NCBI RefSeq assembly: GCF_011045165.1
Contig: NZ_JAAKZI010000002.1
Span: 62,001-126,000 of the forward strand
Reading direction: 5' to 3'
DNA from: Arthrobacter silviterrae
GTDB lineage: Bacteria > Actinomycetota > Actinomycetes > Actinomycetales > Micrococcaceae
Length of the DNA: 64,000 nt
Of the stretch, positions 33,316 through 42,774 are shown one piece after another (the stretch's first letter is position 1; the number at the start of each line of letters is the position of its first letter). Both the position numbers and the translations under genes were made by a program. Below the pieces are notes generated by a model. The model was not told where the DNA came from. It made no database searches and was given only the letters and a program-made list of their open reading frames with translations.

Positions 33316-34686
33316 ATGACTGCGCTCCCCGCTGACAGCGGCGCCCGTGCCCTGCTGGCCGCGTGCCGGCTCGCCTCAACCGACCCGCAGGAGAGGGCCC
33401 TTGCCGCCGTCGACCGCTCAGGCTACGTGCCCGGCGGCATTCCGGACGGGATTGTCTGGGCGGAGACCACCGGGGATGTGGTGCAGGCGCTGCAGCTGGC
33501 CACGCAACACCGCGTGCCGATTGTGCCGCGCGGCGCCGGCACGGGCCTCGCCGCCGGTTCTTCCGCCACGGCAGGCAATGTGGTGCTGGACGTCAGCCGG
33601 ATGAACCGGATCCTCTCCATTGACCCGGTGGAGCAGCAGGCCGTGGTGCAGCCGGGGGTGCTCAATGCCGAGGTCAATGCCGCCACCGCCGAATTCGGGC
33701 TCTTCTACGCCCCGGATCCGGCCAGCACCGCCATCTGCTCGATCGGCGGGAATGTGGCCACAAACGCGGGCGGGATGTGGTGCGCCAAGTACGGGGTGAC
33801 CCGGGAATCCATACTCTCCCTGCAGGTGGTGCTGGCGGACGGCCGCATCCTGAAAACCGGCCGGAACACCATCAAGGGCGTCAGCGGCTACGACCTGAAT
33901 GCGCTCATGATCGGTTCGGAGGGCACCCTGGGCGTGGTGGTCGAGGCCACGCTGCGGCTGCGCCCCAAGCCGCTGCACACGGCCACCGTGGCCGCCTACT
34001 TCGCGGACGCGGAGGCGGCGGCCCAGGCAGCGTCGGCGATCATCGCGGCCCGGATCCAGCCTGCCATTCTCGAATTCATTGACGGCGGGACGCTTGCCGC
34101 CGTCGACGCCATGATGGGCACTGACCACAGCAGCCGTGGCAATGCCTTCCTGCTGGCCCAGACGGACGGGTACGGCGCGCTGCTGGAACAGCAGGTGCTG
34201 GTGGAGGCGATCACCCCCTTTGCGCTGTCCATTGAACAGACCGACGACGGCGACCGGGCGGCCGAGCTGGTCTCCGCACGCCGCAATGCCATCCCCGCCC
34301 TGCAATTGCTGGGCCGGGTCTCCATCGGGGACATCGGCGTGCCTCGCAAGCGGCTGGCCGAAGCCGTGGCGGGCCTGGCCGACATTTCGGAGCGGACCGG
34401 GGTGAAAATTTTCGTCATCGCCCACGCCGCGGACGGCAACCTGCACCCCATGGTGGTGGTCGGCCCCGACGAGTCCATCACCGAGGGCCCCGCCAAGGCG
34501 GCCCTGGGCGAAATGTTCCATCTGGCCAGGCGGCTGGGCGGAACCCTGACGGGCGAACACGGGATCGGACTGCTGAAGAAGGACTGGCTTGAGGAGGAGG
34601 TGGGCTCCCTCTCCCTGGACCTGCAACACCGGATCAAGGCGGTTTTCGATCCCCTGGGCATCCTGAACCCCGGAAAGGGGATTTGA
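33316..34686 (+). CDS. FAD-linked oxidase, GlcD/lactate dehydrogenase type
   Basis: A 456-residue flavoprotein of the FAD_binding_4/FAD-oxidase_C family that oxidises 2-hydroxy acids such as glycolate or D-lactate. The FAD domain has PIVPRGAGTGLAAGSSATAG and GGNVATNAGGMWCAKYGVT, then IKGVSGYDLNALMIGSEGTLGV. The C-terminal half has HAADGNLHPMVVV with metal-binding His residues and GGTLTGEHGIGLLKK. ATG 33316 is used (GTGGGAGC just upstream); an ATG at 33298 is in frame. It is not clustered with glcE/glcF, so it may be a stand-alone D-lactate or D-2-hydroxyglutarate-type dehydrogenase. Confidence 0.9.
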   Translation: MTALPADSGARALLAACRLASTDPQERALAAVDRSGYVPGGIPDGIVWAETTGDVVQALQLATQHRVPIVPRGAGTGLAAGSSATAGNVVLDVSRMNRILSIDPVEQQAVVQPGVLNAEVNAATAEFGLFYAPDPASTAICSIGGNVATNAGGMWCAKYGVTRESILSLQVVLADGRILKTGRNTIKGVSGYDLNALMIGSEGTLGVVVEATLRLRPKPLHTATVAAYFADAEAAAQAASAIIAARIQPAILEFIDGGTLAAVDAMMGTDHSSRGNAFLLAQTDGYGALLEQQVLVEAITPFALSIEQTDDGDRAAELVSARRNAIPALQLLGRVSIGDIGVPRKRLAEAVAGLADISERTGVKIFVIAHAADGNLHPMVVVGPDESITEGPAKAALGEMFHLARRLGGTLTGEHGIGLLKKDWLEEEVGSLSLDLQHRIKAVFDPLGILNPGKGI

Positions 34687-34701
34687 CCCCCGGGCCCGGT
34701 A

Positions 34702-34763
34702 CGGAGGTCGAAACGGACAATCGAGGCCGATATATCAGGATCAAAAGTCCGAATCGACCTCCG
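34702..34763. repeat. Long inverted repeat between FAD oxidase and jetA
   Basis: Arms 34702-34718 (CGGAGGTCGAAACGGAC) and 34747-34763 are inverted copies with 2 mismatches in 17 bp. The 28-bp middle contains a smaller ATCG-AGGC-CGAT hairpin. It starts 15 bp after the oxidase stop and has no T-run. Confidence 0.75.
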
Positions 34764-34873
34764 CCGTGAATGCAGGCCGCCAATTCAGGCCTCTACCCCA
34801 CTAAGTTCCAGGTTTGTCAGCGCCTGCGCCTACGATTGTCCTTGGAAGCAGTTGAAGCCAATGGAGCGGTGCA

Positions 34874-36316
34874 GTGGACTACTTTTCGATCAACTCCCTG
34901 CGTGAAACCCACGCGGGCTGGTCCCTGTTGCGCGCGCAAAACGCTCCCCTGGCCCTGACGTTCTTCATGACGGCGTTCACCGACCCCAACCAGCGCAACC
35001 TGGGCCGCCAGGACCTCATCGACGTGCTGGACGACGTCCTGTTCAGCCTGCGGGACTCCCTGGGAGCGGACAGGTTTCCGCGCTCCGCCGCCGAGTACCT
35101 AGACGACTGGGCGGAACCGGAGAAGGCGTGGTTGCGCAAGTTCTACACGGAGGGCCGCGATGAGCCCGTCTACGACCTCACCGCCGCCACGGAGGACGTA
35201 ATCCGTTGGGTCGAAGCCCTGCGCGGGCGCGACTTTGTGCCCACGCAGTCGCGACTTTCCAGCATTTTCAACCTGCTCAAGACCCTGGTCCACGGCTCGG
35301 AAACGGACCCCGAGGCCCGGCTGGCCGAACTGCAGCGCCAGCGCGATGGCATTGACGCCCAAATGGAACAGATCCGTTCCGGCGAGGTCCCCGTCATGAG
35401 CGGGCCGGAAGCCGTGGACCACTTCCACCAGCTCACCACCCAGGCCAAGGACCTGCTGGCCGATTTCCGGGAGGTAGAGGCGAACTTCCGTAAGCTGGAC
35501 CGCCGGCTGCGCGAGCAAATTTCCATGTGGGAGGGCGGCCAGGGCGACCTCCTGGAATCGATTTTCTCCTCCCAGCAGGACATCAGCGGATCGCTGCAGG
35601 GCCGCACCTTCCAGGGGTTTTGGGACTACCTCATGTCCCCCCAGCTGCGCACCGAACTGCATGAACTCCTGGAGCGGGCCACGCGGATTGAGGCCTTGTC
35701 CGCACAGGACGGGCTGCAGCAAATCACGTCCATGCAGAACGACTGGCTGCCCGCCGTGGAACAAACCCAGGCCACCGTCCGCCAGCTCTCGGCGCAAATC
35801 CGCCGCCTGCTCGATGACAAGGTGTTTCTGGAAAACAAGCGCATCATGGCGTTGATCCGCAGCATCGAATCCAGCGCGGTGGCTGTCCGGGCCGCGCCTC
35901 CGCCTGGCGCTTTCGCGGAACTGTCCGGACATGAAATCCCCGTGGCGCTGCCCTTTGAACGGCCGCTGTATGAGCCCAGCCGGCAAGTTGCCATCGACGA
36001 CGACGTTGATGTCACCGAAGACCTGGACGTGGACGCCAACGCCCTGTTCACCCAGTTCCATGTCGACCCGCACCGGCTGGAAGGGAACATTGACGCCGTC
36101 CTGGCGGAAGCCGGGCAGGCCACCCTGGCCGACGTCACGGATGCCTTCCCGCTCAGCCAGGGGCTGGCCGAGCTGGTGGCGTACTTCCAGCTGGCCACCG
36201 AATCCACCTGGGCCACCATCGACTCCGAGCGGTCCCAAACACTGTCCTGGGCCCTGCCCGACGGCAGCCTCCGCGAGGCCACCGTTGACCAAATCATTTT
36301 TGTGAGGCCATCATGA
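34874..36316 (+). CDS. jetA: Wadjet defence protein JetA (DUF3375, MksF-like kleisin)
   Basis: A 480-residue protein of the DUF3375 family. INSLRETHAGWSLLRAQNAPLALTFFMTAFTDPNQR matches the JetA opening, and DVLDDVLFSLRD, QSRLSSIFNLLKTLVHGSETDPEARLAELQRQRDGIDAQ and the helical middle follow. JetA is the kleisin-like subunit that bridges the JetC SMC heads in the complex that senses and cleaves circular plasmids. GTG 34874 has GGAG nine bases upstream. It overlaps jetB by 4 bp and opens the four-gene operon; a 187-bp gap with an inverted repeat precedes it. Length is normal and no frameshift is seen. Confidence 0.95.
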   Translation: MDYFSINSLRETHAGWSLLRAQNAPLALTFFMTAFTDPNQRNLGRQDLIDVLDDVLFSLRDSLGADRFPRSAAEYLDDWAEPEKAWLRKFYTEGRDEPVYDLTAATEDVIRWVEALRGRDFVPTQSRLSSIFNLLKTLVHGSETDPEARLAELQRQRDGIDAQMEQIRSGEVPVMSGPEAVDHFHQLTTQAKDLLADFREVEANFRKLDRRLREQISMWEGGQGDLLESIFSSQQDISGSLQGRTFQGFWDYLMSPQLRTELHELLERATRIEALSAQDGLQQITSMQNDWLPAVEQTQATVRQLSAQIRRLLDDKVFLENKRIMALIRSIESSAVAVRAAPPPGAFAELSGHEIPVALPFERPLYEPSRQVAIDDDVDVTEDLDVDANALFTQFHVDPHRLEGNIDAVLAEAGQATLADVTDAFPLSQGLAELVAYFQLATESTWATIDSERSQTLSWALPDGSLREATVDQIIFVRPS

Positions 36317-37023
36317 CCCCCTTCGCCACAGGCGCCACCGACGACGCCGGCACCACCGGCAGCGCCCTGCCCGACGCCGGCCCCGCCCCCGACGGCCTCC
36401 CCCTCGCCATCACGAAACTGTTCAAGGGCGTGGTGTACCGCGAGTCGGACGAGAAACTGTGGCAGCGGCTCACGGAACTGTCGGCCCAGGCCCGGGATTA
36501 TGTGGCAGTGCTGGGACTGGAGCTGGTGCTCGACGACACCGAGGGCTACGCGTTCCTGCGCTCCAGCCCAGACGCCGACCCCGAGCTGCCCCGGCTGATC
36601 CCCCGCCGCCAGCTGACCTTCAACGTGAGCCTGCTGTTGGCCCTGCTGCGGGCCCGGCTGGCAGAATTTGATACGCAAAACAGCGAAACCCGGCTCATCA
36701 TGACTGCGGAGCAGATCGGGGACATGGTGTCCGTGTTCCTGCCCGAATCCAGCAATGAGGCCCGCATTCAGGACCAGCTGGCCACCAACATCAAGAAAGT
36801 CACCGAACTGGGGTTCCTGCGCAAGCTCCGCGGGCAGGAGGGGACCTTCGAGGTGGCCCGCATCCTCAAGGCCTACGTGGATGCGCAGTGGCTGGAGGAA
36901 TTCGATGCCCGGCTCGCCGACTACCGCGCCGCGCTGGGCGGGACGGACGCCCAAGGCCGGCCAACCGGCGTCGAGCCTTCCCCTGGCAAGGCGCCACGCA
37001 CCCCGAAGGAGGCCACGGCATGA
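36313..37023 (+). CDS. jetB: Wadjet defence protein JetB (DUF4194, MksE-like)
   Basis: A 236-residue DUF4194 protein, the KITE/MksE-type winged-helix partner that binds the JetA kleisin. ITKLFKGVVYRESDEKLWQRLTELSAQARDYVAVLGLELVLDDTEGYAFLR is characteristic, followed by LPRLIPRRQLTFNVSLLLALLRARL and ELGFLRKLRGQEGTFEVARILKAYVDAQWLEE. Low-complexity tails (Asp/Ala/Pro at the start, Pro/Gly at the end) flank the core. ATG 36313 overlaps the jetA stop, and its own stop overlaps the jetC start, so translation is probably coupled. Confidence 0.95.
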   Translation: MTPFATGATDDAGTTGSALPDAGPAPDGLPLAITKLFKGVVYRESDEKLWQRLTELSAQARDYVAVLGLELVLDDTEGYAFLRSSPDADPELPRLIPRRQLTFNVSLLLALLRARLAEFDTQNSETRLIMTAEQIGDMVSVFLPESSNEARIQDQLATNIKKVTELGFLRKLRGQEGTFEVARILKAYVDAQWLEEFDARLADYRAALGGTDAQGRPTGVEPSPGKAPRTPKEATA

Positions 37024-40000
37024 GCACGCAGGCAGGGCTTTTCAGCCTGGATGACCTCACCCTGGACGACGCCGGCACGCGGCCGGGCTTCCGGCTGCAC
37101 CGCTTGGAACTGCTCAATTGGGGCACCTTCAACAAGAGCGTGCGCACTTTCAGGCTCGACGGCGAGAACAGCCTGCTGACCGGCGACATCGGCTCCGGCA
37201 AATCCACCATCGTTGACGCCATCACCACGCTGCTGCTGCCCGCGAACAGGATCGAGTACAACAAGGCAGCCGGGGCGCAAAAGAAGGAACGCAGCCTCAT
37301 GTCCTATGTGCGCGGCTTCCACAAGAGCGCCCGGAGCGGCCTGGGCGACACTTCCCGGCCGGTGGCGCTGCGCGGCCCGGGCACCTTTACCGTGGTGCTG
37401 GGCGTTTTCCACAACGCGGCCCTGGACAAGACCATCACCCTGGCCATCACCTTGTGGGCCACGCAGGAGGCAGGGCAGCCCACCCGCTTTTACTCCATTG
37501 CCGAGGGCGAACAGGGCATCAAGGCCGACTTCTCCGGCTTCGGCACCGACATGGCCAAGCTCAAGCGCCGGCTGCGCAACGACGGAGTGGCGGTCTTTGA
37601 CGTGTTTGAGAAGTACGCGGCCGCGTTCAAGCGCCACTTTGGCATTGGCTCGGCGCAGGCCATGGACCTGTTCCACCGCACGGTGTCCATGAAGCAGGTG
37701 GAAAACATCACCCACTTTGTGCGCACCAACATGCTCGAAGAGGACGACGTCGACACGCGGATCAAGAACCTGCTGCACCACTTTGACGACCTGAAAAAAG
37801 CCCACGACGCCGTGCTCCGCGCCAAGGACCAGATCCGCATGCTGGAACCCGTCCGCGACAACGCCGCCCGCCACCAGACGCTGACTGCCGACTACGACCG
37901 GGCCCACGAACAGCGCGAACAGCTCTCCCCCTGGTTCACCACCCAAAAGCTGGAACTCAGTGAGGCACACCTGCTGGAACTGGAACGGGCCGCCGTGCGG
38001 ATGGCCGCGGAACAAAACACCCTGACGGCCGAGGTGGGCCGGCTCAACCGGGAACTGGCCGAGCTCCGGGATGACATCCGCAACAGCGGCGGGGGCCGGA
38101 TCGCCGCCATCGAGGGCGAACTGGCCCGGCTGGCCATCGAGTCGGGCGCCCAGCGGGAACGCTACGCCTCGTATTCGGAGGCCGCGGAGGTGCTGGGACT
38201 GTTTGATCCGGTGGACCAGGTGGCCTTTGACGCCAACGCCGCCGCACTGCCCGCCGTCGAAAAGCGGCTGGGCGAAAGCAACGCGGAGCTGCAAGCCCGG
38301 CGCACCGCCCTGGACCGGCAGCGCTCCGAAGCTTCCGAGCTGGCCGGGGACCACACGGCGGAACTGAAGAGCCTGCTGAACCGCCAAAACCTGCTCCCCG
38401 GCTGGCTGATCGCCCTGCGGAAGCGTCTCTGCGACGGCACCGGCATTCCCGAGGCCGGGCTTCCGTTTGCGGGCGAGCTGCTGCGGGTGCGCGAATCCGA
38501 GGCCGCCTGGGAAGGCGCCGCCGAGCGCACACTGCACGGCTTTGCCCTGTCCCTGCTGGTCACCGGGGAACATTACGGCGCCGTCAGCGACTGGGTGGAC
38601 GCCAACAACCTGCGGGCCCGGCTGGTCTACCTGCGGGTGGGCGGCAACCCTGCCCCTCGTCCCGCCGCTGCCGGCACCCTGGCCAGCAAGATCGGCATCA
38701 AGCCTGGCACGCCGTTCCGGGAATTCCTGCTGGAGGAACTGGGCCGCCGCTTTGACCACCAGTGTTGCGAAACCATGGAGGATTTCCGCCGCTATCCCAA
38801 GGCGCTGACCCTCAACGGACAGCTCAAGGGCGGAGGCGGGCGCCACGAAAAGGACGACCGCAAGGAACTCTCCGACCGGTCCAGCTACGTACTGGGCTGG
38901 GACAACCACGACAAGGTTGCCCGCCTCCGCTCCGCCCTGGAAGAAGCCGACGGCCGGATGCGCACCGCCTCCGACGGGCTGGGCCGCATCGACGCCCAGC
39001 TGGGCAACCTGGGACGCCAGCAGCGCCTCATCGGCACGGTTGCCGCCGTCGTAAGTTTTGCCAGCCTGGACTGGCGCGCCACGGCCCGCACCAAGGAGGA
39101 CCTGGCCCAGGAAAAAGCCGCCCTGGAATCCTCCAGCGACATCCTGCGCGAGCTGACCGAGCGGGAGAACGCCACGGGGGACAGGCTGGATCGCACCACC
39201 GGAAAGCTGACCACCCTGGCGGAGCGCGTCGGCGCCAACAAGAAGGGCAGCCAGGACATCACCGAGCAGATCGCGGACTGCCGGGAATCGCTCGCCGGGG
39301 CGCCGCTGACGGACGACGCCGGCCTGCTGGCTGAGCTGGGAAGGCTCGCCCAGGCCGCACTTGAGTCCGAGGCACTGAGCTACAAGAACACCGTGAAGAC
39401 GGAAGGCAAGGTCCGGGAGAAACTGCAGGCCACCCTCGACGCCCTGCAGCTGCGGGCGGGCCGCGCGGCGGAGACCACCATCCGGTTCATGGCCGACTTC
39501 CGCAACAAATACCCTGCGGAAACCACCGAGCTGGACGCGTCACTGGAGGCTGCCGGGGAGTTCAACAGGATCCTGGAGCAGCTGGTTGACAACGACCTCC
39601 CGAGGTTTGCCGAGCGGTTCAAGGAGTCGCTGACGCAAAACACCATCCACGAGATTGTCGCGTTCAATGCCTTCCTGGATTCCCGCCGCCAGGACATCGT
39701 CTCCCGCATCGGCGAAATCAACGAGTCGCTGGCCCGGATCGAATACAACCCCGGCCGGCACATCCAGCTGGAGCCTCAGGCCACCTCAGATGCCGAGGTG
39801 CGCGAGTTCGGCAGCGAGCTTCGGGCCTGCTCCGAAGGCTCCATTGGTGCGCAGGAGCAGTATTCGGAACAAAAGTTCCTCCAGGTGGAGGCCCTCGTGG
39901 AGCGCTTCCGCGGCCGGCCGGGCCTGACCAACCTGGACGAACGGTGGACGGCCAAGGTCACGGACGTGCGCAACTGGTTCACCTTCTCCGCCTCGGAAAA

Positions 40001-40394
40001 GTGGACCGAGACAGGCGAGGAGCACGAGCACTTCACTGACTCCGGCGGCAAGTCCGGCGGGCAGAAGGAAAAACTGGCCTACACCATCCTGGCCGCCGCC
40101 CTGGCCTTCCAGTTCGGCATTGCGGCCGGCCCGGGAAACCAGCGCTCCTTCCGCTTCGTGGTCATTGATGAGGCCTTCGGCCGCGGCTCCGACGAGTCCG
40201 CCAGGTACGGGCTGGAACTGTTCAAGCGGCTCAAGCTCCAGCTCCTCATTGTCACGCCGCTGCAAAAGATCCACGTCATTGAACCGTTCGTGGCCAATGT
40301 GGGATTTGTGGCCAACGAAGCCGGGGACGATTCCCAGCTGCGCAACATGACCATCCACGAGTACCGGGCCGAACGGGACAAGCGTGGCAGCTGA
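37020..40394 (+). CDS. jetC: Wadjet defence protein JetC (SMC-like ATPase, MksB)
   Basis: A 1124-residue SMC-type ATPase, the motor of the Wadjet complex. The N-terminal head has LLNWGTFNKSVRTF and Walker A GDIGSGKST at residues 55-63. Two long coiled-coil arms (about 300-450 and 630-960) flank a hinge region. The C-terminal head carries the signature SGGKSGGQKEK (from Ser1008) and Walker B FVVIDEAF with Asp1050 and Glu1051. All ATPase residues seen are intact. It should extrude DNA loops and present closed circular plasmids to JetD. ATG 37020 overlaps the jetB stop, and jetD starts 11 bp before the jetC stop. Confidence 0.96.
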   Translation: MSTQAGLFSLDDLTLDDAGTRPGFRLHRLELLNWGTFNKSVRTFRLDGENSLLTGDIGSGKSTIVDAITTLLLPANRIEYNKAAGAQKKERSLMSYVRGFHKSARSGLGDTSRPVALRGPGTFTVVLGVFHNAALDKTITLAITLWATQEAGQPTRFYSIAEGEQGIKADFSGFGTDMAKLKRRLRNDGVAVFDVFEKYAAAFKRHFGIGSAQAMDLFHRTVSMKQVENITHFVRTNMLEEDDVDTRIKNLLHHFDDLKKAHDAVLRAKDQIRMLEPVRDNAARHQTLTADYDRAHEQREQLSPWFTTQKLELSEAHLLELERAAVRMAAEQNTLTAEVGRLNRELAELRDDIRNSGGGRIAAIEGELARLAIESGAQRERYASYSEAAEVLGLFDPVDQVAFDANAAALPAVEKRLGESNAELQARRTALDRQRSEASELAGDHTAELKSLLNRQNLLPGWLIALRKRLCDGTGIPEAGLPFAGELLRVRESEAAWEGAAERTLHGFALSLLVTGEHYGAVSDWVDANNLRARLVYLRVGGNPAPRPAAAGTLASKIGIKPGTPFREFLLEELGRRFDHQCCETMEDFRRYPKALTLNGQLKGGGGRHEKDDRKELSDRSSYVLGWDNHDKVARLRSALEEADGRMRTASDGLGRIDAQLGNLGRQQRLIGTVAAVVSFASLDWRATARTKEDLAQEKAALESSSDILRELTERENATGDRLDRTTGKLTTLAERVGANKKGSQDITEQIADCRESLAGAPLTDDAGLLAELGRLAQAALESEALSYKNTVKTEGKVREKLQATLDALQLRAGRAAETTIRFMADFRNKYPAETTELDASLEAAGEFNRILEQLVDNDLPRFAERFKESLTQNTIHEIVAFNAFLDSRRQDIVSRIGEINESLARIEYNPGRHIQLEPQATSDAEVREFGSELRACSEGSIGAQEQYSEQKFLQVEALVERFRGRPGLTNLDERWTAKVTDVRNWFTFSASEKWTETGEEHEHFTDSGGKSGGQKEKLAYTILAAALAFQFGIAAGPGNQRSFRFVVIDEAFGRGSDESARYGLELFKRLKLQLLIVTPLQKIHVIEPFVANVGFVANEAGDDSQLRNMTIHEYRAERDKRGS

Positions 40395-41559
40395 GCCACG
40401 GACCGGCGGACGGGGCTGGACCACACCCGCGGACCTGCGTGCGTCTGCATTGCGGTCATGGAACAGCGGGGAGCTGCTGCGCGAGGCGGCGGCGCCGTCG
40501 GGCCTGCACCCCCGCCGCCGCGCCATCCGGCACCCCAGCGCCACCCAATTGCGCAGCAATTATGCTGAGGCAGCGGCCTGGGCTGCCTTGTGGGATCCGG
40601 AGCCCCGGGGTTCGGTGCTGGAGCACGTTTCCGTCGGGGCCAACACCATCGGCGCCAACATGCTGCCGTCGGCCGCCGTCTTTGCCACTGCCGCCGAGGA
40701 GATTTCCCTGCTGGGGCTGGGCCGTGAGGCAGCCCGGTTTGCAGAGCTTGCCCGGCTCCTGGGCGGGCTCGACGCCGGCCTGGCGGCGTGGGCCCTGCGC
40801 CGGCCGCTCGAGCTGCTCAATCAGGGCGCGGACGCGGTGACAGCTGCCCGCGTGGCACTCTGGCTGGCCGCCAACCCGCATCCCGGGATCTACCTGCGCC
40901 AGCTGTCGCTCGCAGGCGTGCACACCAAGTTTGTGGAGACACACCGCCGGCTCATCGACGACATGCTTGTGACGTTGGACCCTGAACGGACGGTCTCGGG
41001 AAAGAATTATGCCCGGCGCCACGGCTTCCTGGCTGCGCCGGACCGGGTCAGGCTGCGGTTTTTGGACCCGGCCCTGGCACCCGCACCGGGGCTCACGGAC
41101 GTGGAGGTGACGGCTGCCGGATTTGCCGCCCTGGACCTGGGCGTGGACAGGGTCATCACCACGGAAAACCTGGTCAACTTTCTGGCCTTGCCCAACGCAC
41201 CGCGCACGCTGGCCGTATTTGGCGGCGGATACGGCTTCGAGGGTCTGCGGGAAGCCTCGTGGCTGCGCGGCACCGAGGTGCTCTACTGGGGCGACCTCGA
41301 CACCCACGGCTTCCACATCCTGGACCAGCTGCGCGCCCACCACCCTCACGTGCGCAGCATCCTGATGGATGAGGGGACGCTGCTGGCCCACCGCGACTTT
41401 TGGGGCCGGGAGGACACCCCCACCCGGGCGGTGCTGACGCACCTGACGGCTGAGGAAGGCGCCCTTTATGCAGCCCTCCGTAATGGCACCTTTGCTCCGC
41501 AGCTGCGCCTGGAACAGGAACTGCTGCGCTGGGACTGGGTGCTGGCCCGGCTGCCCTGA
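40384..41559 (+). CDS. jetD: Wadjet nuclease JetD (DUF3322-DUF2220, Toprim type, MksG)
   Basis: A 391-residue protein with an N-terminal DUF3322 domain (about 1-190, including RAIRHPSATQLRSNYAEAAAWAAL) and a C-terminal DUF2220 Toprim domain. The Toprim acidic residues are in place: Glu261 in VITTENLVNFL and Asp304/Asp306 in YWGDLDTHGFHILDQL, so DNA cleavage should be possible. JetD cuts circular plasmids once the JetABC motor has encircled them. GTG 40384 lies within the jetC 3' end; no better start is near. It is the last gene of the operon, followed by a short tandem repeat and the HsdR-like fragment. Confidence 0.95.
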   Translation: MAAEPRTGGRGWTTPADLRASALRSWNSGELLREAAAPSGLHPRRRAIRHPSATQLRSNYAEAAAWAALWDPEPRGSVLEHVSVGANTIGANMLPSAAVFATAAEEISLLGLGREAARFAELARLLGGLDAGLAAWALRRPLELLNQGADAVTAARVALWLAANPHPGIYLRQLSLAGVHTKFVETHRRLIDDMLVTLDPERTVSGKNYARRHGFLAAPDRVRLRFLDPALAPAPGLTDVEVTAAGFAALDLGVDRVITTENLVNFLALPNAPRTLAVFGGGYGFEGLREASWLRGTEVLYWGDLDTHGFHILDQLRAHHPHVRSILMDEGTLLAHRDFWGREDTPTRAVLTHLTAEEGALYAALRNGTFAPQLRLEQELLRWDWVLARLP

Positions 41560-41572
41560 ACGGCGGGTGCAG

Positions 41573-41618
41573 CACGGCGGATCGTTTGGGCGCCCCACGG
41601 CGGATCGTTTGGGCGCCC
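41573..41618. repeat. 23-bp tandem repeat, two copies, downstream of jetD
   Basis: The unit CACGGCGGATCGTTTGGGCGCCC occurs at 41573-41595 and 41596-41618 without mismatch. It lies 14 bp after the jetD stop and before the convergent HsdR-like fragment. No promoter or terminator form is evident. Confidence 0.9.
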
Positions 41619-41650
41619 GGGGCTCCGACGCCGGCCCCTGTGACGGGGCA

Positions 41651-41980
41651 TCAGTCTCCGGCTGCGGCACCAACCGCCTGGCCCAGCTCCGCGAACCTGG
41701 CACTTTCCTTCTCAATGCTGGCCACCTCGCGCGGCACGTAGCCGGCTGCCGCCAAATCCGTGTGAAGTGCCTCAAACGCCTGCTGGAAACGGCCAATCGC
41801 GGCATAAAAGGCGCGGCGCCGCGGCTCCTTGTCCTTCGCAGCCTGGCCACCCGTGCCGCAAAAATACGCCACGAACTGCTTCGCCTGCATGGGAACCGCC
41901 ACGTCCTCGCACAATTCCCGGAGCCCGGAGGTGGCCTCTTCCAATTCCTTGCGGCACGCGGCCAGCTCAATCTCATCCAT
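41651..41980 (-). pseudogene. HsdR-like fragment (type I restriction R subunit, C-terminal region)
   Basis: A 109-residue reading frame whose sequence resembles a segment near the C-terminus of type I restriction HsdR proteins: ELCEDVAVPMQAKQFVAYFCGTG, KEPRRRAFYAAIGRFQQAFEAL, AAAGYVPREVASIEKESARFAELGQAV and a terminal GD. A full HsdR is around 1000 residues, and the nuclease and helicase parts are absent; only 47 bp separate the fragment from the next gene. ATG 41980 has no good ribosome site; GTG 41995 is an alternative. It is either the remnant of a lost restriction system next to Wadjet or a stand-alone small protein of the same fold. The family assignment is from memory of the pattern. 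Confidence 0.55.
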
Positions 41981-42027
41981 GCATCCATCATCCACCCGAG
42001 ACCGGCAGCCCCGCTGCGGATGCCCGG

Positions 42028-42774
42028 CTATTCCGCGGTCCCGTCCACCAGGCCCATGAACATGGTCCGGTGGAGCGTGTCCACATGGCGCCGGGAAATC
42101 TCCACGGCCGCCTGGACACGGCCTTCCCTCAAGGCTGCCACCAGCTGGATGTGGTCCTGGTTGGAGCTGTGCAGGCTCTCGATGGGGTACGGGATGAAGT
42201 ATTCGTACAGCTCGCTCAGGACCTCAAGGTAAGCCTCGACGGCGCCCTCCAGCCCCGATGCGCCGGCCACCAGGCGGTGGAATTCCTCATCCAGCTGGTG
42301 GTAGCCGGACCAGCTCTCAGCCTGGGCCATTCTCCCGGTCAAGGCTTCCAACTCCCCCAGCTGGTCCTCGGAAATGTTCACGGCCGCGAAGTGCGTAACA
42401 GCGCATTCACCCAGCACCCTGCGGTCCACGAGCCGGTGCACGCGGTTGAACTCGCCGGCCGGCGCCGCCAGGGCAGCCAGGACATCGCGCGGGGGCGCAT
42501 CCGCCACAAACGTCCCGCCGTTGCGCCCGCGGCGGCGTACCACAACGCCTTCGTCGGCCAGGGTGGTCAGGGCCCGCCGGGCCGTGATGGGGCTGACCGA
42601 AAGCCCCAAGGCCACGTCGTGCTTGTCAGGCAGGCGCTCCCCCGGCTTGAGCAGGCCCAGGAAGATGGCAGTGCCAATGCGCAGCCGCACAGCTTCGATG
42701 GCGCTGCGGCGTTCCAGTCCCGCCAGCGCCGCATCCCCGATGGGGGAGGTGTCCGCAGCTGATTCGTGGCTCAT
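42028..42774 (-). CDS. GntR-family regulator (FadR/FCD type)
   Basis: A 248-residue regulator. The winged helix reads IEAVRLRIGTAIFLGLLKPGERLPDKHDVALGLSVSPITARRALTTLADEGVVVRRRGRNGGTFV. The C-terminal FCD domain has LDEEFHRLVAGASG and a later HIQLVAALREG, the metal-site positions. ATG 42774 is preferred to GTG 42783; neither has a clear ribosome site. It is divergent from a nitrilase-permease-nitrilase operon, with the palindrome GATCA-N3-TGATC in the gap, and should control that operon. Confidence 0.9.
   Translation of the reverse strand: MSHESAADTSPIGDAALAGLERRSAIEAVRLRIGTAIFLGLLKPGERLPDKHDVALGLSVSPITARRALTTLADEGVVVRRRGRNGGTFVADAPPRDVLAALAAPAGEFNRVHRLVDRRVLGECAVTHFAAVNISEDQLGELEALTGRMAQAESWSGYHQLDEEFHRLVAGASGLEGAVEAYLEVLSELYEYFIPYPIESLHSSNQDHIQLVAALREGRVQAAVEISRRHVDTLHRTMFMGLVDGTAE

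What the first reader, a model, noticed from the sequence alone, without database searches (positions are those of the whole stretch)
34874..41559. Complete Wadjet (JetABCD) anti-plasmid system in one overlapping operon
All four subunits are present with intact key residues: JetC Walker A (55-63), signature and Asp1050/Glu1051, and JetD Toprim Glu261, Asp304 and Asp306. Gene overlaps of 4, 4 and 11 bp indicate coupled translation. This is a known system (DUF3375, DUF4194, SMC-like ATPase, DUF3322-DUF2220), not a new one, but it looks fully functional and is the main defence locus of the window. It predicts that this strain resists small circular plasmids.
Basis: partly seen in the sequence, partly recalled or inferred. 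Interest (0 to 1): 0.75.

Follow-up and report, generated by a model that had tools for sequence, protein, structure and literature searches.

The report
Type I Wadjet anti-plasmid operon
This soil actinobacterium carries an intact, ordinary copy of the known Wadjet system that cuts circular plasmids; the more interesting fact is that its genome also holds a second Wadjet-like DNA motor without the cutting part, which every genome of the genus examined carries.

Summary
Window 34874-41559 is a complete jetABCD operon (overlaps 4, 4, 11 bp); all four proteins match their Pfam families and PADLOC type I models, and the ATPase and Toprim residues are intact. It is a new member of a known kind. 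Anti-plasmid activity of this copy is inferred from homology, not shown.

Context adds two things. (1) The operon is accessory: intact in 13 of 23 genomes of the genus, missing from between the same neighbour genes in G011, and reduced to a broken jetD in G014. (2) The same genome has a second, intact jetABC locus without jetD; that locus is in 23 of 23 genomes of the genus. In a family sample 168 of 295 genomes have JetA, but only 63 have a full or nearly full JetD match. JetD-less JetABC recurs in several families of the order. These look like MksBEF-type condensins rather than plasmid defence, so a JetABC-only 'Wadjet' call should not be read as anti-plasmid. A contig-count proxy for plasmids showed no family-wide association with JetD.

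The parts
34874..36316 (+). jetA (kleisin subunit, DUF3375), GTG start
   Evidence: PF11855 1.4e-130; PADLOC JetA1 PDLC00457 634 bits, residues 1-479 on model 1-479 of 480
36313..37023 (+). jetB (KITE subunit, DUF4194), overlaps jetA by 4 bp
   Evidence: PF13835 2.2e-43, also MksE PF21980 3.2e-20; PADLOC JetB1 PDLC00474 298 bits
37020..40394 (+). jetC (SMC-like ATPase), overlaps jetB by 4 bp
   Evidence: PF13555 and PF13558; PADLOC JetC1 PDLC00512 1401 bits; solved JetC 8dk2 1e-64
37182..37208 (+). jetC Walker A, GDIGSGKST, residues 55-63
40167..40172 (+). jetC Walker B Asp1050 and catalytic Glu1051
40384..41559 (+). jetD (nuclease subunit, DUF3322 plus Toprim-type JetD_C), GTG start, overlaps jetC by 11 bp
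   Evidence: PF09983 2.1e-52, PF11795 1.1e-38; PADLOC JetD1 PDLC00530 433 bits; solved MksG 8b7f 1.8e-28 and JetD 7til 2.6e-16
41164..41166 (+). jetD Glu261, metal-binding Toprim residue
   Evidence: aligned with position 248 of the solved mutant JetD(E248A) 8q72 and with E236 of MksG; invariant in 7 aligned JetD
41293..41301 (+). jetD Asp304 and Asp306, Toprim DxD
   Evidence: invariant in 7 aligned JetD
41651..41995 (-). 114-aa ORF of unknown function, convergent with jetD; missing with the operon from the G011 site
   Evidence: found beside jetABCD in 3 of 12 other genus loci (L033, L035, L043), not in L196; no Pfam or PHROGs family
34687..42027 (.). stretch between the FAD-oxidase gene (ends 34686) and the GntR-family gene (starts 42028) that holds the operon; in G011 these two neighbours lie 46 bp apart

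Best explanation
An intact type I Wadjet (JetABCD, also called MksBEFG or EptABCD) system. JetC dimers with JetA (kleisin) and JetB (KITE) form a loop-extruding SMC motor; when it has reeled in a whole small circular DNA, JetD is brought to the stalled complex and cuts both strands, so the plasmid is lost. Shown here: the complete gene set, order, overlaps, intact ATPase and nuclease residues, and conservation of the operon in relatives. Inferred from the published type I systems: loop extrusion, sensing of circle size, cleavage, and that this copy is expressed and active.
For: Pfam and PADLOC type I matches of all four proteins; intact motifs; homology to solved JetC (8dk2, 8as8) and JetD/MksG (8b7f, 7til, 8q72), with E261 at the position of E248 of 8q72; Tyr283 and the E377-Q-E379 motif at the places of MksG Y258 and E349/E351. 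JetD and window-class JetA always go together: 13 of 13 genus genomes and 59 of 59 family genomes with a JetA of at least 409 bits have a full or nearly full JetD match. Presence/absence within the genus, with an empty site and a decayed copy, is what a defence system shows. JetD is the least conserved subunit across the 13 copies (mean pairwise identity 71 against 81-87% for A, B, C).
Against: No activity data. No sigma-70-like promoter match in 34660-34900 (organisms with other promoters are not covered). Near-complete genomes with JetD are not poorer in extra contigs than those without in the family (12 of 17 single-contig against 29 of 42; Fisher p 1.0), although the 10 near-complete genomes of the genus lean that way (4 of 5 against 0 of 5, p 0.048). 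The IFDR-like JetD contact described for JetB (PMC10586767) was not recognised in the window JetB N-terminus. The own genome was not searched for plasmids.
Confidence: 0.93

Rival explanations
1. The window operon is mainly a chromosome-organising condensin (MksBEF-like), with JetD a lesser or regulatory partner.
For: Same fold family as MksBEF; JetB also matches the MksE family; a JetABC paralogue without JetD exists in the same genome.
Against: JetD is kept intact in 13 of 13 genus copies of this class with the catalytic residues invariant in the 7 JetD aligned; the copy is missing from 10 of 23 genus genomes, unlike a housekeeping gene; the genome has ScpA of Smc-ScpAB and the JetD-less copy.
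Confidence: 0.04
2. The operon is present but silent or inactive in this strain.
For: No promoter-like or terminator-like match next to it; a sister genome carries a broken jetD remnant at the matching place; contig proxy neutral in the family.
Against: All reading frames and motifs are intact, with high conservation across 13 genomes (JetC mean pairwise identity 84%).
Confidence: 0.1
3. The operon acts against phages or other DNA with circular stages as much as against plasmids.
For: Wadjet was found by defence-island searches (PMC10586767, passages); any small circular DNA is a possible substrate (inference).
Against: Published activity is anti-plasmid (same paper); nothing here tests it.
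Confidence: 0.1

Closest known systems
Corynebacterium glutamicum MksBEFG (actinobacterial type I Wadjet; MksG structure 8b7f)
   Same: Same four families; JetD is closest among solved chains to MksG (1.8e-28), including E236, D279, Y258 and E349/E351 at E261, D304, Y283, E377/E379. C. glutamicum is the one of 14 control genomes that rings for JetA and JetD.
   Different: Not the only JetABC of its genome: a JetD-less copy is present too. Activity of the window copy is not shown.
Type I Wadjet of E. [quoted passage not shown]
   Same: JetC homologous over nearly its full length (8dk2 1e-64, 8as8 2.9e-55); JetD catalytic residues aligned.
   Different: Distant sequences; JetB of the window lacks a recognisable IFDR-like N-terminal motif.
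Pseudomonas aeruginosa MksBEF condensin (for the second locus, G000:C59)
   Same: Kleisin, KITE and SMC subunits without the JetD nuclease; [quoted passage not shown]
   Different: Not compared by sequence here; PADLOC models call the second locus JetA1/B1/C1; chromosome role untested.
Paenarthrobacter lasiusi S21: one 'Wadjet' of JetA, JetB, JetC and one type I JetA1-JetD1
   Same: Same pairing of a JetD-less and a complete locus in one Micrococcaceae genome (table passage of PMC11719660).
   Different: The passages seen count both as defence systems and do not remark on the missing JetD.

Membership tests
Wadjet type I (JetABCD) | JetA, DUF3375 kleisin | tested here: met
   PF11855 1.4e-130; JetA1 634 bits
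Wadjet type I (JetABCD) | JetB, DUF4194 KITE | tested here: met
   PF13835 2.2e-43; JetB1 298 bits
Wadjet type I (JetABCD) | JetC, SMC-like ATPase with Walker A, signature, Walker B | tested here: met
Wadjet type I (JetABCD) | JetD, DUF3322 plus DUF2220/JetD_C Toprim nuclease with E, DxD | tested here: met
Wadjet type I (JetABCD) | gene order A-B-C-D in one operon | tested here: met
   coordinates and overlaps; same order in 12 of 12 other genus copies. A single transcript is inferred
Wadjet type I (JetABCD) | type I rather than II or III | tested here: met
   best PADLOC models are JetA1, B1, C1, D1; type 2/3 models only weak (JetC2 14 bits, JetD3 at most 17 bits)
Wadjet type I (JetABCD) | IFDR-like motif at the JetB N-terminus contacting JetD | tested here: inconclusive
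   not seen in the window-class JetB; an LFxGDTG-like motif occurs in JetB of loci both with and without JetD (read by eye)
Wadjet type I (JetABCD) | restriction of small circular plasmids by cleavage | not testable with these tools
   needs a transformation assay
MksBEF-type condensin (second locus, G000:C59) | SMC, kleisin and KITE genes together without JetD | tested here: met
   JetA, B, C intact, next gene a malic enzyme; the only JetD_C match of the genome is the window copy
MksBEF-type condensin (second locus, G000:C59) | role in chromosome organisation | not testable with these tools
   needs a deletion and Hi-C

The most novel reading that the evidence does not exclude
The JetD-less JetABC that sits beside the Wadjet operon in this genome is a domesticated Wadjet motor. 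Actinomycetales have turned the plasmid-sensing SMC complex into a resident condensin several times by losing the nuclease (JetD state changes at least 10 times on the JetC tree), and in this genus the resident motor and the armed plasmid cutter coexist as paralogues. Much of what is counted as 'Wadjet' in these families would then not be defence.
Probability: 0.45. Interest if true: 0.6.

Novelty: new member of a known kind. Interest (0 to 1): 0.3.

Why it matters
The operon itself adds one well-conserved example to a known system, useful when choosing vectors for this group of soil bacteria. The wider point matters more: defence surveys report Wadjet in 42% of Actinobacteria (PMC10482375, passages), whereas in the samples here 168 of 295 family genomes and 78 of 198 order genomes hold JetA, but only 70 and 40 hold any JetD_C match. 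Whether those surveys count JetABC-only loci I did not check; PADLOC models do name the JetD-less proteins JetA1/B1/C1, and one published genome lists such a locus as Wadjet. A genome with both forms allows a direct test of what JetD adds and whether a defence motor became a condensin.

Tried and rejected
Plasmid link: in the genus, near-complete genomes with JetABCD were 4 of 5 single-contig against 0 of 5 without (Fisher p 0.048), but in the family it was 12 of 17 against 29 of 42 (at most 6 contigs; p 1.0) or 29 of 47 (at most 9 contigs; p 0.57). Contig count is a poor proxy; two genomes with a partial or broken JetD (G082, G235) and all genomes without JetA were left out, the latter because most of their contig counts are not listed. 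Rejected as evidence.

A JetB N-terminal motif as a mark of JetD dependence: found in JetB of loci with and without JetD, absent from the window class. Not informative.

Mobile-element boundaries: no exact word of 9 or more bases shared by 34687-34873 and 41561-42028, and only weak scattered repeats; no att site found. The region after jetD folds no better than shuffles (z -0.37).

A replacement effector in the JetD-less loci: in 9 of 23 genus loci a large RNase_H_2-plus-helicase gene lies near jetA, but 12 of 23 sit by ssb instead and 2 of 23 had none of my nine neighbour markers, so it is not a fixed partner. In family f11 the genes between jetA and jetB are varied in the six loci listed (read by eye, no family search of them).

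Structure prediction was not run: solved homologues of JetC and JetD already cover the question.

Limits: my HMM labels for JetD use fetched stretches only. Some loci end soon after jetC (at least 8 of 23 core loci have under 700 bp left; 10 of 49 named loci under 2 kb); for the genus the whole-genome search closes this gap, for the named loci nothing does. The tree is a quick search with long branches flagged.

Full report
The observation. Window 34874-41559 (+) holds four overlapping genes: jetA 34874-36316, jetB 36313-37023, jetC 37020-40394, jetD 40384-41559, overlaps 4, 4 and 11 bp, no internal stops. Pfam gives DUF3375, DUF4194, SbcC_Walker_B with AAA_29, and DUF3322 with JetD_C, all far above cut-off. 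PADLOC's best models are JetA1, JetB1, JetC1 and JetD1, i.e. Wadjet type I; NCBIfam has no family over its cut-off for them. JetC keeps Walker A (55-63), the SGGQ signature (1012-1015) and D1050/E1051; JetD keeps E261, D304 and D306. JetC is homologous to the solved JetC chains nearly end to end. JetD is homologous to MksG of C. glutamicum (8b7f), JetD 7til and JetD(E248A) 8q72; counting along the printed alignment, window E261 falls on position 248 of 8q72, the mutated catalytic residue. MksG E236, D279, Y258, E349 and E351 (passages of PMC10123090) correspond to E261, D304, Y283, E377 and E379 in the same alignment, and these are invariant in seven aligned JetD.

How it most likely works. 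From published type I systems (PMC10586767, passages and section 7; PMC10123090, passages) JetABC is a loop-extruding SMC complex and JetD the nuclease that cuts circular DNA. Gene content, order and residues are shown here; extrusion, recognition of small circles, cleavage and expression in this strain are inferred.

Accessory distribution. In the genus sample JetA is found in 23 of 23 genomes and falls into two score classes: 13 rows at 425-442 bits (the window class) and 23 rows at 302-331 bits. An intact JetD_C match occurs in 13 of 23 genomes, the same 13 that have the window class; one more, G014, has two fragments, and the 13 loci each hold A, B, C and D. In 4 of the 12 other genus loci the operon lies near the same FAD-oxidase gene as in the window (L033, L035, L036, L043); in the others it lies elsewhere. 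That oxidase is found in 7 of 23 genomes at the strict threshold used. In one of them, G011, oxidase and GntR gene lie 46 bp apart with no jet gene and no copy of the 114-aa ORF between: an empty site. In another, G014, three jetD pieces in three frames remain near the oxidase and nothing of jetA-C at E up to 1e-3: a decayed copy. No flanking repeats mark a mobile element. On plasmids, a JetC relative at E up to 1e-50 is in 9 of 72,556 records. Across the 13 genomes the accessory JetC is more alike than the resident JetC in 72 of 78 pairs, and the two trees share 2 of 10 splits, which suggests some horizontal movement of the accessory operon, on single-gene trees.

The second locus. G000:C59 has jetA, jetB and jetC, with a malic-enzyme gene directly after jetC and no jetD. 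Such loci are present with intact A, B and C in 23 of 23 genus genomes; Walker A (GHPGVGKS) and Walker B (VMIDEAF) are intact in 23 of 23, the LSGGEGQ signature was read in 21 of 23 (in L179 and L180 my pattern caught another SGGE first). At least 8 of these 23 loci end within 700 bp of jetC, but the whole-genome search found no JetD besides the window-class copies and the G014 fragments. Twelve of 23 lie by ssb (mostly with rplI and dnaB), nine near a large RNase_H_2-helicase gene, and two showed none of the nine neighbours used. The genome also has ScpA, so Smc-ScpAB is presumably there. In named genomes, 49 of 49 loci found with this JetC carry A, B and C without D, 10 of them with under 2 kb of downstream sequence; they include Arthrobacter, Specibacter, Glutamicibacter, Paeniglutamicibacter and Zhihengliuella, with the closest JetC at 82% identity in Arthrobacter. 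The host is therefore a Micrococcaceae bacterium near Arthrobacter or Specibacter (inference).

Wider sample. In 295 family genomes, JetA is in 168 and JetD_C in 70, of which I count 63 full or nearly full and 7 partial or broken. All 59 genomes with a JetA row of 409 bits or more have a full JetD; 109 JetA genomes have only lower-scoring JetA, and of the four full-JetD genomes outside the 59 two (G252, G253) are among them. One second high-scoring copy, in G228, has no JetD beside it (L157), as has G477 in the order sample (L077). In 198 order genomes, JetA is in 78 and JetD_C in 40. A JetC tree of 103 of the 117 loci scanned (JetC of at least 1000 aa) puts the window in a 16-row clade with JetD in every row (SH-aLRT 100), within a 25-row clade (23 with, 2 without JetD); the Micrococcaceae resident copies form a separate 16-row clade without JetD (100). 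The JetD state needs 12 changes, at least 10 forced by well-supported branches, against 34 for shuffled labels. Some changes may be artefacts: L140 is cut by a contig end, and the labels use fetched stretches. Two lower-scoring family copies (G155, G032) fall outside the resident clade. In family f11 jetA, jetB and jetC lie apart among other genes, which is unlike a defence cassette.

Known or new. P. aeruginosa MksBEF is thought to have lost JetD and to organise the chromosome (PMC10586767, passage). Paenarthrobacter lasiusi is listed with one JetABC and one JetABCD locus, both as Wadjet (PMC11719660, passages). A survey reports Wadjet in 42% of Actinobacteria (PMC10482375, passages). In six searches I found no paper that treats the JetD-less JetABC of Micrococcaceae as a conserved resident locus; most subscription papers are not held. 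Of PMC12287153 I saw only search listings.

Verdict. The finding is correct and ordinary: a new member of Wadjet type I. The paired JetD-less motor is the part worth following.

Noticed in passing
G000:C59:1441-6904 (L032 1441-6904, minus strand): A second, intact jetABC locus without jetD in the window's own genome; the same kind of locus is in 23 of 23 genomes of the genus.
   Followed up: yes
L032 6979-11028 (minus strand): A 1350-aa RNase_H_2 plus SF1-type helicase protein encoded next to the JetD-less jetA; a relative is found in 9 of 23 genus loci, within about 150 bp of the jetA frame in L183, L188, L191, L194 and L195.
   Followed up: partly
L098, L101, L117 (family f11): jetA, jetB and jetC lie kilobases apart or separated by unrelated genes, without jetD: a dispersed JetABC set.
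   Followed up: partly
window 41651-41995 (minus strand): 114-aa ORF of unknown function that is absent together with jetABCD from the G011 site and sits beside jetD in three other genus loci.
   Followed up: partly
L114 (G346): An operon with jetA and jetB, only a 91-aa jetC piece and a short jetD of 264 aa: apparently a decayed Wadjet.
   Followed up: no
G211 and G037 (family scan): Genomes with a full JetD_C match and no DUF3375 match at all, possibly other Wadjet types or orphan JetD.
   Followed up: no
L170, L171 and other JetD-bearing loci versus JetD-less loci: In the pattern read-out the JetC signature shows SGGK or SGGQ in most JetD-bearing loci and SGGE in most JetD-less ones, but several JetD-bearing loci (L118, L129, L136, L137, L145) also read SGGE.
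   Followed up: no
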